In this document: positions 1,574 through 8,126 of the stretch, piece by piece
How positions within the stretch are numbered: position 1 is the first letter of the stretch
How the letters are laid out: every line of letters begins with the position of its first letter
Source: Lacticaseibacillus suibinensis
Lineage (GTDB): Bacteria; Bacillota; Bacilli; Lactobacillales; Lactobacillaceae
Direction of reading: 5' to 3'
Assembly: GCF_003946175.1 (NCBI RefSeq)
Contig: NZ_RHOK01000010.1
Span: 1-64,000 of the forward strand
DNA length: 64,000 bases
Position numbers and translations under genes: made by a program
Notes under the pieces: generated by a model
Databases searched by the model: none
The model's input: only the letters and a program-made list of their open reading frames with translations
Told to the model about the DNA's origin: nothing

Positions 1574-2206
1574 CTAATTGTTTTTCTGCTCATCCATTGC
1601 ACCCAGCAATGCCGGATACTCGAAATTAGACTTAAGTAACATTTCGCAAAATTTGATTATCAGTTCAGCCTGCTGCTGTGTATTAATAACTAGTCGATGC
1701 GTTGCTGCATTTCCATACTTACGAATAGCATCAATCCATTTAGTACTGTTCGTAGTGACATAATTATGGTCTGCAAGATAATCTACATAAAATTGAAAGC
1801 TTTGATTATCTTTCGCCCCGAAACTAACAGCCACGTGGTCTAGTAAGGTTCTGCATAACAGAATGACACCAGTATATGCCCCAACAGAATATGCAGATCG
1901 CGCTTCTTCATAAATCTCATTTACATCTGGTTCGACGTTTTGAACAGAATTGCCGAAGTTTTTACCTGGAACCTGAATTTCCATGCCCTCCTTGTCCTTT
2001 CCTATAAAAGTTGGCAAGTTACATGATGTGCATATATAAATACCCGCTGGCTGTGATGTTTTGTAGTTACCATACTTGTCATGATATCCCAAAGACATCC
2101 CCTTCTCACTGTTTACACGTTCTCCACAATATCCACATGTAAAACTTGCACTTCGTATTGTTCCTGAGTTCCAATCATGTGCGTAATCATTTAAATCGTA
2201 TTTCAT
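1574..2206 (-). CDS. DUF4145 domain protein with N-terminal zinc-ribbon cysteines
   Basis: The protein has 210 residues from an ATG preceded by TGAGGTGATAAGA. Two CxxC pairs (CGYC near 24-27 and CTSC near 60-63) suggest a zinc ribbon. The C-terminal half has the DUF4145 pattern: ARSAYSVGAYTGVILLCRTLL, then an IRKYGNAATH motif. DUF4145 occurs alone in phages and also attached to restriction and other defence proteins; its biochemical role is not established. The gene has its own terminator and sits just downstream of the structured RNA and tRNA. It may be a cargo gene acting on competing phages, which is inference. Confidence 0.75.
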   Translation of the reverse strand: MKYDLNDYAHDWNSGTIRSASFTCGYCGERVNSEKGMSLGYHDKYGNYKTSQPAGIYICTSCNLPTFIGKDKEGMEIQVPGKNFGNSVQNVEPDVNEIYEEARSAYSVGAYTGVILLCRTLLDHVAVSFGAKDNQSFQFYVDYLADHNYVTTNSTKWIDAIRKYGNAATHRLVINTQQQAELIIKFCEMLLKSNFEYPALLGAMDEQKNN

Positions 2207-2265
2207 TCTTATCACCTCAAAAAAATAGTACTCCAGCATGAACTGGAATACTACGTTGAGGTGAG

Positions 2266-2338
2266 TGTAGACGGCAGGGCTTTAACCTGCACCCACGCAA
2301 TTATAAGTTGCGCGCTCTACCGATTGAGCTACATCTAC
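2266..2338 (-). tRNA. tRNA-Ile(UAU), phage encoded
   Basis: A full cloverleaf is visible on the minus strand. The acceptor GTAGATG/CGTCTAC has one G-U pair; the D stem is GCTC/GAGC; the anticodon stem CGCAA/TTGCG closes the 7-base loop CTTATAA; the T stem is GCAGG/CCTGC with a non-canonical loop TTAAAGC. The anticodon is UAU, reading AUA directly. No CCA is encoded (discriminator A, then CTCA). Bacteria usually read AUA with a lysidine-modified CAU tRNA, so this is an uncommon choice. It directly follows the 3' end of the large structured RNA. Confidence 0.88.
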
Positions 2339-2632
2339 GTAAGCGAGCGGACGGAGTTGCACCGCCCTGTTTCAGCATTGCTTAACCGGTACCAATGCCT
2401 TCCCTCATCGTCTGTTGCTCGCATAATGCGCCACCGGTCGTACTTCCCAGCGACGACTTCTGGCGAGATTGACCAGCCCAGATTGTGCCGGACTTTCACC
2501 GGGCTTCACTGCTGACCGAAGCAATGCAGTATGCAGGGTGCGACCCCGCTCATCATATGAAGGTGTCAATTAGTCTTGGCAAACTCACAAAGTCCCACCA
2601 TCCAAAGGCTCTGTGGTTGCTATCCTTGACTA

Positions 2633-2705
2633 TGTGAGAGGTGGGAATCGAACCCGCATATTGCCCGCCTGATGACGGGGTGCCGTACCAATTGGCTACT
2701 CTCAC
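2633..2705 (-). tRNA. tRNA or tRNA-like domain embedded in the large RNA, anticodon unclear
   Basis: A 7-bp acceptor GTGAGAG/CTCTCAC, a TA GCC...GGC D arm and a canonical T arm (GCGGG TTCGATT CCCAC, one mismatch) form a 73-base tRNA shape. The anticodon arm is irregular: CCC/GGG pairs enclose an oversized loop containing CGTCATCAGGC, and no placement gives five clean pairs and seven loop bases. CAU preceded by U is the only reading with the usual U33. It may be a decayed tRNA or a structural mimic. Some GOLLD RNAs are known to carry a tRNA inside. Confidence 0.6.
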
Positions 2706-2842
2706 TCCATGCTATCCGAGGCGATGGTTTCTGAGCCCTCGGTTTCGGTGGTTCCCACATTGCCTTGAAGTGCAAGGCATGTGACCACGCTTTATATTCG
2801 CCCATTATCCGTGCTAGCAAACACGCCGGGCTTTACCGGTTC

Positions 2843-2913
2843 TATCGCTGGTCGGGATTTGCACCCGGCATGATGATCATCAACTAAGCGTCTACCTATT
2901 CCGCCACAGCGAC
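2843..2913 (-). other. tRNA-Leu-like fold lacking a normal anticodon arm
   Basis: The 5' part GTCGCTG TG GCGGAATAGGTAGACGC looks like a class II (leucine-type) acceptor and D arm, and CGGG TGCAAAT CCCG with CAGCGAT gives a T arm and 3' acceptor. Between them there is only a short palindrome, TGATGATCATCA, which cannot make a 7-base anticodon loop. It probably belongs to the large RNA as a tRNA mimic rather than being a decoding tRNA. Confidence 0.5.
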
Positions 2914-3150
2914 ACGACACGAATCCTAGATACCGCGCTAGGCCGCTAACGACAGATCTGTCATCCGGTGTAAGTGTGTCTTCTTACACTGGCCAATTGT
3001 GTTTGCTCGCTCTCCCAGTTTAGTATGGGGTCATCGCAAGCTATTCCCCGTGCCGGAATCGGACCGGCAGCCGTGCGTGGCTTCCATATCGGGGTGACCT
3101 GTCCATGGCTTTATCATCACCACAGACCGACATAAACCAAGAAAGAAGGC

Positions 3151-3176
3151 GTGCCTCTGGTTCCCACCTTTGGCAC
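3151..3176 (-). terminator. Hairpin between the ArpU gene and the large RNA
   Basis: GTGCC and GGCAC enclose GGT/ACC with a tetraloop, and a T-rich tract (CTTCTTTCTTGGTTT on the minus strand) follows. It could end the early transcript after ArpU, or be the 5' hairpin of the large RNA. The tract is interrupted, so termination would be partial. Confidence 0.45.
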
Positions 3177-3198
3177 AATACAATAATAACATGCAATT

Positions 3199-3681
3199 TC
3201 AGGGCAGATGTCCAGTCTTTGTCCGCTCTTTGTCCGGTGTTTGTCCGCTGTTTGTCCGGACCAGCAATCCATGGTCACCGACCGGCCATAGTCCGGCAAA
3301 GGTATAAAGCGCGTCCTTAAGAGCATCGTAGTACCCGCTTTTCTCATATCCAGAATCCGCAATCAACATTTCTACGGCAATGGGTCGCTTAATGTAATAG
3401 TCTTTCAGTATGTTTCGCCGAGCATCATCTTCGATGCACTCGATTGTCTTTTCACAGACTTCTACGTACGTTTCATCATCCAAATGGTTGGTAATCTTTA
3501 TTTCCATAACGTTGCCGATTGATGGCGACCTTGGCATGCCATCAAGCGATGGCGACTTGATCGAGGCTTTCACACGTGACCGCTGTTTTCGTCTGCGATA
3601 GTCTTCTAGCACATTGTCAGCTTCGGCCACAGATGCTTCATAATCCCACGGGCTCACAGCACTAGCTGTTGTCTTTCTCAC
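3199..3681 (-). CDS. ArpU/RinA-family late transcription regulator
   Basis: This protein of about 160 residues (GTG at 3681, ribosome site AGGAG) has the ArpU-family pattern. It has a basic N-terminal part (DYRRRKQRSRVKASIKSP), an acidic middle, and a C-terminal sigma-like helix-turn-helix region (RRNILKDYYIKRPIAVEMLI through GYEKSGYYDALKDALYTFAG). Such proteins end the early operon and switch on late packaging, structural and lysis genes. Here the next thing downstream is the large RNA, so that RNA may belong to the late transcript. The same frame stays open upstream to 3756 and would add a membrane segment; see the findings. Confidence 0.82.
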   Translation of the reverse strand: MRKTTASAVSPWDYEASVAEADNVLEDYRRRKQRSRVKASIKSPSLDGMPRSPSIGNVMEIKITNHLDDETYVEVCEKTIECIEDDARRNILKDYYIKRPIAVEMLIADSGYEKSGYYDALKDALYTFAGLWPVGDHGLLVRTNSGQTPDKERTKTGHLP

Positions 3682-3752
3682 TTGCGCATCACTCCTTTCC
3701 CAATTAGCCCAGAACCACACGCCCACCAAGGCTATGAACAGCATGACGGCAA

Positions 3753-3866
3753 TCAACGATCATGCCACCAGTTGTAAATTAGCCAGATAGCTAGCGCGGT
3801 TAATCCAATGATTGTAGCAGCGATCTCGAACCAGAATTTGAATCCAAGATAATCATATAAGCTCAT
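3753..3866 (-). CDS. Small phage membrane protein (37 residues)
   Basis: The ATG at 3866 follows an ideal GGGAGGAAGT site. The product has a single hydrophobic segment (FEIAATIIGLTALAIWLIYN) and a short basic tail ending HDR. Its TGA overlaps a TTG that opens the frame running into the ArpU gene. Small single-span proteins of this sort are frequent in early phage operons; function unknown. Confidence 0.65.
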   Translation of the reverse strand: MSLYDYLGFKFWFEIAATIIGLTALAIWLIYNWWHDR

Positions 3867-6830: not shown

Positions 6831-7246
6831 AGTTCCTCTACCTCAATTTCTACCCGCGGTGTGTCGCTGTACCACTTGCTGACGTGCATCTCAACGATTT
6901 GGTTGTCGTCTACCCATACAATCCCGGTCAGCGCATCAGACACCGCTTTGTAATAGTTGTCTGTATCCGGTTTAACAGTTGGCCTAATGATGCCGTCCTG
7001 TTTTTGCCGCTTAGTAAGCTTGCTACCGGCTTTTTGAATGCCCCTGTATACTTTCACGCTTATCCTGATAGAACCCGTCATAGGCTCAATATGGAGCTCC
7101 TGCCGTGCAATCTGCTTGACGTACTCCTTGTACGCTTTAGACTTGGGCGGATCATACGTACTTACATACTTTCCTCGCCGAGAAAACCTAGGCCGTCCTT
7201 GAGCAACCGGTTCACCGGGAATAGTTAATTTAACTGCTGGTTGCAT
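6827..7246 (-). CDS. rusA: RusA-type Holliday junction resolvase
   Basis: The 139-residue protein begins LTIPGEPVAQGRPRFSRRGK, the conserved RusA opening, and has the catalytic-site block KPDTDNYYKAVSDALTGIVW followed by VDDNQIV, supplying the conserved aspartates. RusA dimers cut four-way junctions at CC and act in phage recombination and replication. It lies just after the replisome organiser with overlapping ends, the usual siphovirus arrangement. Confidence 0.92.
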   Translation of the reverse strand: MQPAVKLTIPGEPVAQGRPRFSRRGKYVSTYDPPKSKAYKEYVKQIARQELHIEPMTGSIRISVKVYRGIQKAGSKLTKRQKQDGIIRPTVKPDTDNYYKAVSDALTGIVWVDDNQIVEMHVSKWYSDTPRVEIEVEEL

Positions 7247-8126
7247 TTCTACTCCTAAGTTGTTCTAATTCCTTGAGTTGCTCCGCCAGCTCCGCTTTAG
7301 CGTCTGCGCTGACCTCTTGCTTAGGTGCTTTGTAGCCTTCTTGCATCCATTCTGGCGTGGCCTCCTGTCTCGCAGGCGCACGTCTTGAGATGTATGGCCG
7401 GTTAGCCTGCGCCTTCATGGTGTCGTACTTCTCACGCAGCTTAGCGACACTCAAGATATTCGTTTGCCAGAACGTATCAGACTGGCACCAGTCGATCATG
7501 CGATGGATCTTGTCGAATGGTCGCTTGTCGATCTCGTGCATCTTGCGAATGTCATTTGCCCACGCTTGCAGGTTCGGCTTCCTGTGCTCTGGATTGTTGC
7601 TTTTGATTTTCTCCCAGAGGTAGGTCGCTTCGATCAGTTCCGGGGAGTCGTCGGCATATTCCCGCTTGCGGGAATGCTGACTATCTCTTTTATTAGCATT
7701 CTTTGCATTCTTAGCATTCTTGATTGTTGTCACTGGGTTGTCAGTGGATTGTCGTTGGGTTGTCATTGGGTTGTCACTGCTCTGATATTGAGGGTAGTTA
7801 ACTACAGTAATGACGCTGTATTTGTTGTTTGACTTGATTGTCAACATGCCTTCATTTTCAAATCGTTTTACCCAGCGCCAGACCTTTCGCCATGCCACTT
7901 GATTGTCACGAGGTACCCCGTTGTTGAACTCAAACGCCAATGCGTGGGCTCCCGTGACCAGTTGACCGCTTGTCACGTCCACCTGCTGACCGTTAAATAG
8001 GAAACGATTGCCATCGTGAGATGCCTTCATCAAAATTAACAGCCATAGCTTTAACTGATTTGCGTCAGTCCATACGAAGGACTGGCGTATTTTCCGATAT
8101 ACCTTGATCCAGCCTCCGTCTGCCAT
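7230..8126 (-). CDS. Phage replisome organiser (DnaD-like)
   Basis: The 298-residue protein has a winged-helix N-terminus (GWIKVYRKIRQSFVWTDANQ to about residue 115, with LVTGAHALAFEF and RWVKRFENEGMLTI). Next comes a low-complexity linker encoded by DNA repeats, then a C-terminal part (WANDIRKMHEIDKRPFDKIH, FWQTNILSVAKLREKYD) like the DnaD/DnaB2 helicase-loading domain. Such proteins bind the phage origin and recruit the host helicase machinery. The iterons at 7694-7779 lie inside this gene, as expected for an origin bound by its own product. Confidence 0.85.
   Translation of the reverse strand: MADGGWIKVYRKIRQSFVWTDANQLKLWLLILMKASHDGNRFLFNGQQVDVTSGQLVTGAHALAFEFNNGVPRDNQVAWRKVWRWVKRFENEGMLTIKSNNKYSVITVVNYPQYQSSDNPMTTQRQSTDNPVTTIKNAKNAKNANKRDSQHSRKREYADDSPELIEATYLWEKIKSNNPEHRKPNLQAWANDIRKMHEIDKRPFDKIHRMIDWCQSDTFWQTNILSVAKLREKYDTMKAQANRPYISRRAPARQEATPEWMQEGYKAPKQEVSADAKAELAEQLKELEQLRSRNATSS
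7694..7779. repeat. Iteron cluster, probable phage replication origin
   Basis: Five tandem 11-bp units of the form TTGTCANTGGG run from 7727 to 7779 (the last truncated to 9 bp). Beside them three copies of an A/T-rich unit GCATTCTT lie at about 7696-7720. An 11-bp period is not a multiple of three, so conservation is at the DNA level rather than imposed by the protein. Iterons plus an AT-rich stretch inside the replisome-organiser gene is the known arrangement of lactococcal and lactobacillus phage origins. Confidence 0.75.

What the first reader, a model, noticed from the sequence alone, without database searches (positions are those of the whole stretch)
2342..3120. Giant structured phage RNA (GOLLD/ROOL-like) between the late regulator and the cargo genes
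About 780 gene-free bases in a prophage carry many long-range and local helices on the minus strand, at least five T-loop hairpins, one embedded tRNA shape and a flanking tRNA. GOLLD RNAs, known from Lactobacillales phages, share exactly these traits (about 800 nt, next to or containing tRNAs, abundant in the lytic phase), and recent structures show such RNAs form large multimers. The sequence may be a divergent member or a new class.
Basis: partly seen in the sequence, partly recalled or inferred. Interest (0 to 1): 0.88.

Follow-up and report, generated by a model that had tools for sequence, protein, structure and literature searches.

The report
Late phage array of tRNA-like RNA cassettes
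Lacticaseibacillus phages carry, right after their late-gene switch, a gene-free stretch that looks like the gene of a mosaic RNA built from broken, mostly non-decoding tRNA look-alikes and other cassettes, one of which resembles the RNA next to a predicted toxin gene, so it may be a set of RNA decoys against bacterial defence rather than a known giant phage RNA.

Summary
The region is a real structured-RNA locus of a Lacticaseibacillus prophage, but neither GOLLD nor ROOL (no hit at E<=10). It is laid out as a minus-strand transcription unit: 11-bp iterons in the 3' end of a late-activator gene, a conserved -10/start core, leader hairpin, tRNA-like structure without D arm, kink-turn-like hairpin, exchangeable cassettes, intrinsic terminator. 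I collected 90 non-redundant relatives. Many cassettes are tRNA "top halves" (acceptor plus T arm) with very different bottom halves; within the first 700 nt ARAGORN finds a standard-anticodon tRNA in 7 of 90. Cassette D is a covariation-supported pseudoknot. A divergent D (40.4 bits) lies in the same genome directly upstream of a PBECR4 predicted RNase gene, and a weaker one (16.8 bits) in another genus, as in type III toxin-antitoxin loci; 298 core-bearing loci held show no PBECR4 match. In phages Lb338-1 and Lbab1 such cassettes follow a true ROOL RNA. Best reading: a late-made RNA array acting in trans as antitoxin/tRNA decoys (D: moderate support; tRNA-like cassettes: inference). Rivals: a lambda pR'-like late leader, or decayed tRNAs. 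No expression data were available.

The parts
3199..3756 (-). Late transcriptional activator gene (ArpU/RinA-type, phrog_248) just upstream
   Evidence: phrog_248 E 1.4e-23; the same family sits directly upstream of the array in 6 of 6 phages tested
3209..3259 (-). 11-bp iterons (CNGGACAAANA), overlapping the 3' end of the activator gene; probable activator sites (inferred)
   Evidence: TRF period 11 and 22; best period 11 in 73 and 22 in 14 of 95 arrays scored
3174..3188 (-). Conserved promoter core TATTATTGTATTGTG (-10 TATTAT; no sigma-70-type site called here by the consensus scan)
   Evidence: Near-invariant in 96 arrays, but part of it was the search pattern; one copy in the window and in each of 3 complete phage genomes; promoter scan
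3151..3176 (-). Leader hairpin GTGCC...GGCAC
   Evidence: Read from the sequence; shared by the leaders collected
3046..3094 (-). TLS1: tRNA-like structure without D arm (acceptor CCCCG/CGGGG, 4-bp arm, T arm GCCGG-TCCGATT-CCGGC)
   Evidence: Fold (z -1.04); other phages have GTGGCA/TGCCAC, GCTCCG/CGGAGC or ATCCCG/CGGGAT here; a few have a different, T-arm-less module (L010, L217)
3005..3041 (-). C element: GCTTGC-GAT-GA-CCCCA..TGGG-A-GA-GCGAGC hairpin, kink-turn-like
   Evidence: Alignment of 18; too conserved for covariation; the kink-turn reading is mine from a recalled consensus
2916..3000 (-). D cassette: three hairpins and a pseudoknot; relative of an RNA upstream of PBECR4 nuclease genes
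   Evidence: 10 pairs with changes on both sides, 0 of 500 shuffles; relatives at L307/L365 and, weakly, L372
2843..2913 (-). E cassette: tRNA-Leu-like acceptor, D arm and T arm, with a 12-nt palindrome TGATGATCATCA in place of an anticodon arm
   Evidence: Rfam tRNA 21.9 bits, below cut-off; this family has 19 distinct inserts of 20-104 nt; single-sequence fold not exceptional, z -0.32
2707..2844 (-). E2 cassette: non-tRNA stem-rich segment, also 3' of ROOL in Lb338-1 and Lbab1
   Evidence: Alignment of 9; fold z -1.13
2633..2705 (-). F cassette: tRNA-like with an abnormal anticodon loop, annotated tRNA-OTHER in phage CL2
2432..2632 (-). G segment: the fifth T-arm-like hairpin at 2503-2487; 2457-2432 shared with another array (L019), no relative found for the rest
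2343..2422 (-). H cassette: tRNA-like GCGAGCA...CGCTCGC with a hairpin in place of the D/anticodon arms
   Evidence: covariation NOT supported
2265..2338 (-). tRNA-Ile (TAT anticodon), the only tRNA with a standard anticodon called in the unit
2225..2254 (-). Intrinsic terminator, 13-bp stem followed by TTTTTT
   Evidence: a terminator of this sequence type occurs within 1400 nt in 19 of 90 arrays

Best explanation
Shown by sequence: a unit laid out for late transcription encodes a modular RNA: a constant 5' part (leader hairpin, D-armless tRNA-like TLS1, C hairpin) followed by none to several exchangeable cassettes (tRNA-like structures with paired acceptor/T arm and very variable bottom half, plus non-tRNA domains such as the D pseudoknot) and a terminator. 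Inferred: the ArpU-type activator switches it on late; host tRNA-processing enzymes cut at the tRNA-like parts and free the pieces; the pieces act in trans as decoys. For D the target is predicted: PBECR4-type RNases, of which one gene carries a clear and a second a weaker D-like RNA directly upstream, so D would act as a stand-alone RNA antitoxin that protects the phage from such a toxin-antitoxin locus in the host or a resident prophage (as pseudo-ToxI does for phage PhiTE). For the tRNA-like cassettes, which rarely look able to decode, the likeliest target is an enzyme or toxin that binds tRNA; this step has no direct evidence.
For: 90 non-redundant arrays; tRNA-like structures 1.92 per first 700 nt against 0.0 antisense and 0.031 shuffled (arrays were pre-filtered for at least one). 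Position-defined test: of 80 unique stretches after the C element, 40 distinct ones have a T arm, and 33 of these 40 have a >=6-WC acceptor strand 0-3 nt after the C element with inserts of 12-86 nt; shuffled mean 0.94, max 5 in 500 trials; 3' strand shifted: 0 of 37-40. Standard-anticodon tRNA within the first 700 nt in 7 of 90. D: 96.4% of cells paired, 10 pairs changed on both sides, 0 of 500 shuffles. D-like element of 40.4 bits, E 2.3e-9 for the genome, directly upstream of PBECR4 (PF18813, E 8.9e-13); a second of 16.8 bits in another genus. Both share hairpin-1/pseudoknot/hairpin-3 layout with the 11 array copies compared (the layout check had no shuffle control). No PBECR4 match in 298 core-bearing loci. 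Terminators in the first 1000 nt: 73 of 85 sense, 20 antisense, 11 shuffled. Cassettes C, D, E, E2, F stand 3' of ROOL in Lbab1, with no late-promoter core or leader in the stretch read.
Against: No transcript, processing or binding was tested. Only one cassette type links to a toxin, and only 2 of 33 PBECR4 loci searched carry a D-like RNA. The second one is weak: random DNA gives up to 13.9 bits in 573 kb and a probably chance hit of 23.5 bits in a coding gene came up in 295 genomes; it counts only because of its place and layout. Both D-like loci are among the 8 of 31 PBECR4 loci without a terminator call upstream. H shows no covariation, C no variation. The search for targets of the variable parts was local and only the top 40 of 266 hits were shown, those being other array copies. 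The iteron promoter is the only one of its type found in three phage genomes, so a role in cis for the late operon is not excluded.
Confidence: 0.45

Rival explanations
1. A cis-acting late leader: the iteron promoter is the late promoter, and the constant 5' RNA with its terminator forms a short terminated RNA that late antitermination or read-through turns into the late mRNA (compare lambda pR'/6S RNA, recalled). Cassettes are passengers.
For: The promoter core occurs once in each of three complete phage genomes and the window, and the iteron sequences cluster there; by gene order the unit lies between late activator and terminase; minimal units are leader-TLS1-C-terminator of roughly 225-265 nt.
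Against: Cassettes occur 3' of ROOL in Lbab1 and Lb338-1 without this promoter or leader in the stretch read; cassette structure is kept.
Confidence: 0.25
2. A decaying phage tRNA island: former tRNAs that lost anticodon arms and are kept only by recombination.
For: One normal tRNA remains in the window; bottom halves vary widely; in H one acceptor pair is broken in 7 of 18 and there is no covariation.
Against: Acceptor and T arms stay paired across different cassettes; TLS1 sits at about the same place in most arrays listed; D is no tRNA and covaries.
Confidence: 0.12
3. An RNA assembly or compartment related in function to ROOL/GOLLD cages, with the tRNA-like cassettes as cargo or scaffold.
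For: Such cassettes lie directly 3' of ROOL in two Herelleviridae phages; D hairpin 2 has a self-complementary loop in 12 of 13 array copies of the main type (GATC, GCGC, GTAC), which could dimerise.
Against: No homology to ROOL/GOLLD; minimal units of roughly 225-265 nt are far smaller; the Lbab1 copy (GCTC) breaks the palindrome and the 4 copies of a second D type lack it.
Confidence: 0.08
4. A divergent GOLLD or ROOL RNA.
For: Size, tRNA neighbours, prophage location.
Against: No match at E<=10; models shown to work on true members; 0 of 30 genus genomes match either, though in those two searches no control genome rang.
Confidence: 0.02

Closest known systems
Type III toxin-antitoxin RNA antitoxins and the phage PhiTE pseudo-ToxI decoy (review PMC5086642, passages seen)
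   Same: Pseudoknotted RNA upstream of an endoribonuclease gene; a phage copy without the toxin gene. In 23 of 31 PBECR4 loci a terminator lies within 160 nt upstream of the start (3.3 expected from shuffles).
   Different: PBECR4 is not one of the type III toxin families I recall (ToxN, CptN, TenpN); D is a single ~85-nt unit, not a tandem repeat; the two D-like PBECR4 loci lack a terminator call; the phage copy sits in a tRNA-like array behind a late-type promoter.
ROOL RNA (RF03087)
   Same: Phage RNA near tRNA-like genes; in Lb338-1 and Lbab1 ROOL lies directly 5' of such cassettes.
   Different: No covariance-model match; cassette array, not one fold.
GOLLD RNA (RF02032)
   Same: Phage-borne, about 800 nt, near or containing tRNAs (Kretsch et al., PMC12286853, passages seen).
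   Different: No model match; the size here is a sum of exchangeable modules.
Phage tRNA arrays
   Same: Several tRNA-shaped units in a row, one normal tRNA-Ile.
   Different: Few units are called as tRNAs with a standard anticodon; inserts of 12 to ~100 nt replace D/anticodon arms.
Lambda pR' / 6S RNA late leader (recalled)
   Same: Short terminated RNA at the late promoter.
   Different: Activator-type promoter with iterons; tRNA-like content.

Membership tests
GOLLD (RF02032) | Match to the covariance model | tested here: not met
   No hit at E<=10 in window 2200-3260; the model works on 2 of 301 family genomes
ROOL (RF03087) | Match to the covariance model | tested here: not met
   No hit at E<=10; 213.5 and 201.5 bits in L006 and L002
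ROOL / GOLLD | Homo-oligomeric RNA cage | not testable with these tools
   needs native gels or cryo-EM
Phage tRNA array | Units are decoding tRNAs with normal anticodon loops | tested here: not met
   Standard anticodon within the first 700 nt in 7 of 90 arrays by ARAGORN; in the window only tRNA-Ile, beyond those 700 nt
tRNA-like structures | T arm next to a 7-bp acceptor closed by a 5' strand | tested here: met
   33 of 40 at defined positions; 4 in 2261-3185 including tRNA-Ile; but no covariation within family H
Type III TA RNA antitoxin (D cassette) | Pseudoknotted RNA with covariation | tested here: met
   (pseudoknot pairs vary on one side only, G-U; the hairpins change on both sides); layout
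Type III TA RNA antitoxin (D cassette) | Adjacent endoribonuclease toxin gene | tested here: not met
   No PBECR4 match in 298 core-bearing loci; relatives L307/L365 and L372 do have it
Type III TA RNA antitoxin (D cassette) | Binds and silences the toxin | not tested
   needs co-expression or binding assay

The most novel reading that the evidence does not exclude
An RNA-only anti-defence island: a late-expressed, recombining array in which each cassette is an RNA mimic (RNA antitoxin or tRNA decoy) for a different RNase toxin of the host or of resident prophages, found across Lacticaseibacillus phages and shared with lytic Herelleviridae next to ROOL; with it, PBECR4 nucleases as a new family of RNA-controlled toxins.
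Probability: 0.35. Interest if true: 0.93.

Novelty: new variant of a known kind. Interest (0 to 1): 0.8.

Why it matters
If true, phages carry a swappable set of RNA decoys, comparable to protein anti-defence islands, and the function of phage tRNA-like genes next to ROOL becomes testable. It also points to PBECR4, a predicted RNase found here in 33 of 301 Lactobacillaceae genomes (30 over the family's cut-off), as the toxin of an RNA-controlled toxin-antitoxin system, and gives a clear test in food-grade bacteria.

Tried and rejected
GOLLD/ROOL membership: rejected. One giant fold: not supported (segment folds z between -2.49 and +0.21). Simple tRNA array: rejected as the main content. Guide-RNA idea (bottom halves matching genes): 108 inserts gave 266 hits in loci held; the top 40 shown are other array copies that my mask had not covered, the rest were not inspected. 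Covariation of C and H: none. Other cassettes as PBECR4-type antitoxins: besides D no match below E 0.09 between 90 arrays and 33 PBECR4 upstream stretches. A D-model hit in another family of the order (G457, 23.5 bits) lies in a coding gene and was set aside as probable chance. Of 39 contigs with a D-like DNA pattern, 8 were arrays already held and 31 new; of the 31 only 10 score as D (9 array-type, 1 the PBECR4 locus of the window's own genome), so 21 of 39 are not D. The wider ROOL survey of the family failed three times for technical reasons. Literature: ten searches of the open PMC library listed no description of this array or of an RNA with PBECR4; the phage BH1 paper PMC6950654 (passages only) lists the ArpU gene followed by a gap. 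Tested and left open: palindromic hairpin loops of D; alternative pairing of TLS1-alpha.

Full report
WHAT IS THERE. The stretch 2342-3120, minus strand, holds five T-arm hairpins (0 of 1000 shuffles; none on the other strand), a tRNA-like gene at 2633-2705 and, just outside, tRNA-Ile(TAT). It is gene-free (longest open run 70 codons). The overall fold is not exceptional (z -1.21, 20 shuffles). Rfam gives only tRNA matches above its thresholds; no GOLLD or ROOL at E up to 10.

RELATIVES AND HOST. Pieces of the region match 22 phage records, and a 671-base stretch of phage iLp84 (end of arpU to past its array) matches 47, all named Lactobacillus or Lacticaseibacillus phages. A covariance model of TLS1 plus C (R1) matches 9 of 301 Lactobacillaceae genomes, all in the window's own genus (1 of 40 genera sampled). 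That genus is Lacticaseibacillus: contig G013:C6 has the same length as a Lacticaseibacillus mingshuiensis contig with the same element. The window's genome has two further arrays, on contigs C1 and C19.

A MOSAIC OF CASSETTES. Matches break at the same places in many phages: 2916, about 2713, about 2431, 2341. From 267 places with the promoter-core pattern, 156 had at least one tRNA-like structure within 500 nt and enough sequence, 117 were non-redundant, 96 passed a first filter and 90 a stricter one (C element or TLS1-alpha). The filter selects for tRNA-like content, so the densities (1.92 per first 700 nt, antisense 0.0, shuffled 0.031; 3 of 90 with none) are biased upward. The position-defined test does not choose by acceptor pairing at that place: of 80 unique stretches after the C element, 40 distinct ones have a T arm, and 33 of the 40 have its acceptor partner 0-3 nt after the C element. 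Family 1 has the acceptor GCAACYG...CRGTTGC with 20 distinct inserts of 22-64 nt, family 2 a tRNA-Leu-like D arm with 19 distinct inserts of 20-104 nt, family 4 an insert of only 12-14 nt. Pairing of 22 position-defined family-1 top halves, including rows where another cassette sits, is 83.3% against a shuffled maximum of 73.5% in 1000 trials; for the acceptor alone it is 77.3% against 76.0%. Family H, however, gives no covariation signal, and C does not vary.

TRANSCRIPTION UNIT. Upstream lies an ArpU-type activator (phrog_248) in the window and in six of six phages tested. Eleven-bp iterons of differing sequence precede the core: best period 11 in 73 and 22 in 14 of 95 arrays of the looser set. 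In Lc-Nu, iLp84, R24.2 and the window the core occurs once. Downstream, strong terminators occur in 73 of 85 arrays with enough sequence in the first 1000 nt, against 20 antisense and 11 shuffled; the shortest units are leader-TLS1-C-terminator, roughly 225-265 nt. Of 186 tRNA-like units of the eight largest families none encodes CCA, and in 147 a T is the second base after the paired acceptor, which would suit RNase Z processing (recalled, not tested).

LINK TO ROOL. In Herelleviridae phages Lb338-1 and Lbab1 a true ROOL (213.5 and 201.5 bits) is directly followed by cassettes of this array: E, E2 and F in Lb338-1, and C, D, E, E2 and F in Lbab1, without the temperate-phage promoter core and leader in the stretch read. 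So cassettes travel and are kept apart from the late promoter.

LINK TO A PREDICTED TOXIN. Cassette D (2916-3000) has strong covariation in its hairpins; the pseudoknot is fully paired with G-U changes only (17 sequences). Its model R2 found three array copies in the window's genome and a fourth, divergent copy on contig C17 (40.4 bits, E 2.3e-9), 11 nt upstream of a 179-aa ORF (29 nt if an internal ATG is the start) that is PBECR4 (PF18813), just after a prophage endolysin. PBECR4 was then found in 33 of 301 Lactobacillaceae genomes, 19 of 40 genera, and in 31 phage records of Staphylococcus, Streptococcus and Listeria. Of 33 loci searched (30 of the 39 matches, plus one Listeria and two Staphylococcus phages), R2 hits two: C17 again and L372 in another genus (16.8 bits, E 0.0043). 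The second is weak: 75 loci, 573 kb, of mostly unrelated DNA give at most 13.9 bits, but a probably chance hit in a coding gene reached 23.5 bits in a search of 295 genomes; L372 counts because it lies directly upstream of PBECR4, on the right strand, with the same layout (hairpin 1 holding the pseudoknot strand, hairpin 3 paired with other letters). Most other PBECR4 genes looked at have other sequences upstream, three of them clear tandem repeats of 52-54 nt (88-93% alike; L347, L348, L353), and 23 of 31 have a terminator within 160 nt of the start (3.3 by shuffling; L365 and L372 are among the 8 without). This is broadly the layout of type III toxin-antitoxin loci. No PBECR4 match lies in the 298 loci held that contain the core pattern, a number that includes chance matches of the pattern.

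HOW IT MAY WORK. Shown: anatomy, conservation, mosaicism, D's relative beside PBECR4. Inferred: late expression, processing at tRNA-like ends, action in trans. Most likely D is a stand-alone copy of an RNA antitoxin that shields the phage from a PBECR4 toxin; pseudo-ToxI of phage PhiTE is the precedent (PMC5086642, passage seen). The tRNA-like units rarely look able to decode and vary where anticodon nucleases read, so decoys for tRNA-acting toxins are the natural extension, without direct evidence. The iteron promoter being single in the genomes checked keeps the late-leader rival alive.

LITERATURE. Kretsch et al. (PMC12286853, passages) note that ROOL and GOLLD lie near tRNA islands; Cousin et al. 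(PMC5643018, passages) describe a long RNA in L. salivarius; PBECR domains are predicted RNases (PMC5512222, passages). None of my ten searches of the open PMC library listed this array or an RNA partner of PBECR4; subscription papers were not searched.

Noticed in passing
L344-L373 (PBECR4 loci), L341-L343: Many PBECR4 nuclease genes of Lactobacillaceae, Listeria and Staphylococcus phages have a non-coding stretch and a terminator just upstream, three with clear tandem 52-54-nt repeats: looks like an RNA-controlled toxin-antitoxin family.
   Followed up: partly
window 3209-3259; 95 arrays: 11-bp iterons of different sequence in different phages lie at the 3' end of the late activator gene, suggesting co-evolving late activator binding sites.
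   Followed up: partly
window 2951-2962: D hairpin 2 is a 12-nt palindrome with self-complementary loop (GATC, GCGC, GTAC in different phages; GCTC in Lbab1 is an exception), a possible RNA dimerisation site.
   Followed up: no
window 7725-7779: Another 11-bp repeat cluster inside ORF 7230-8126 (minus strand), perhaps replication-origin iterons.
   Followed up: no
window 2633-2705 and relatives: The F tRNA-like unit has a highly conserved abnormal anticodon loop (CGTCATCAGGC, CGTCATTAGGC in Lb338-1) in Lacticaseibacillus and Herelleviridae phages.
   Followed up: partly
window 1574-2239 (-): DUF4145 protein gene just downstream of the array, of unknown role.
   Followed up: no
L005:2220-2351 and other TLS1-alpha copies: TLS1-alpha carries two copies of its 5' acceptor strand (GTGGCAAGGCGTGGCAA), which would allow two alternative pairings.
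   Followed up: no
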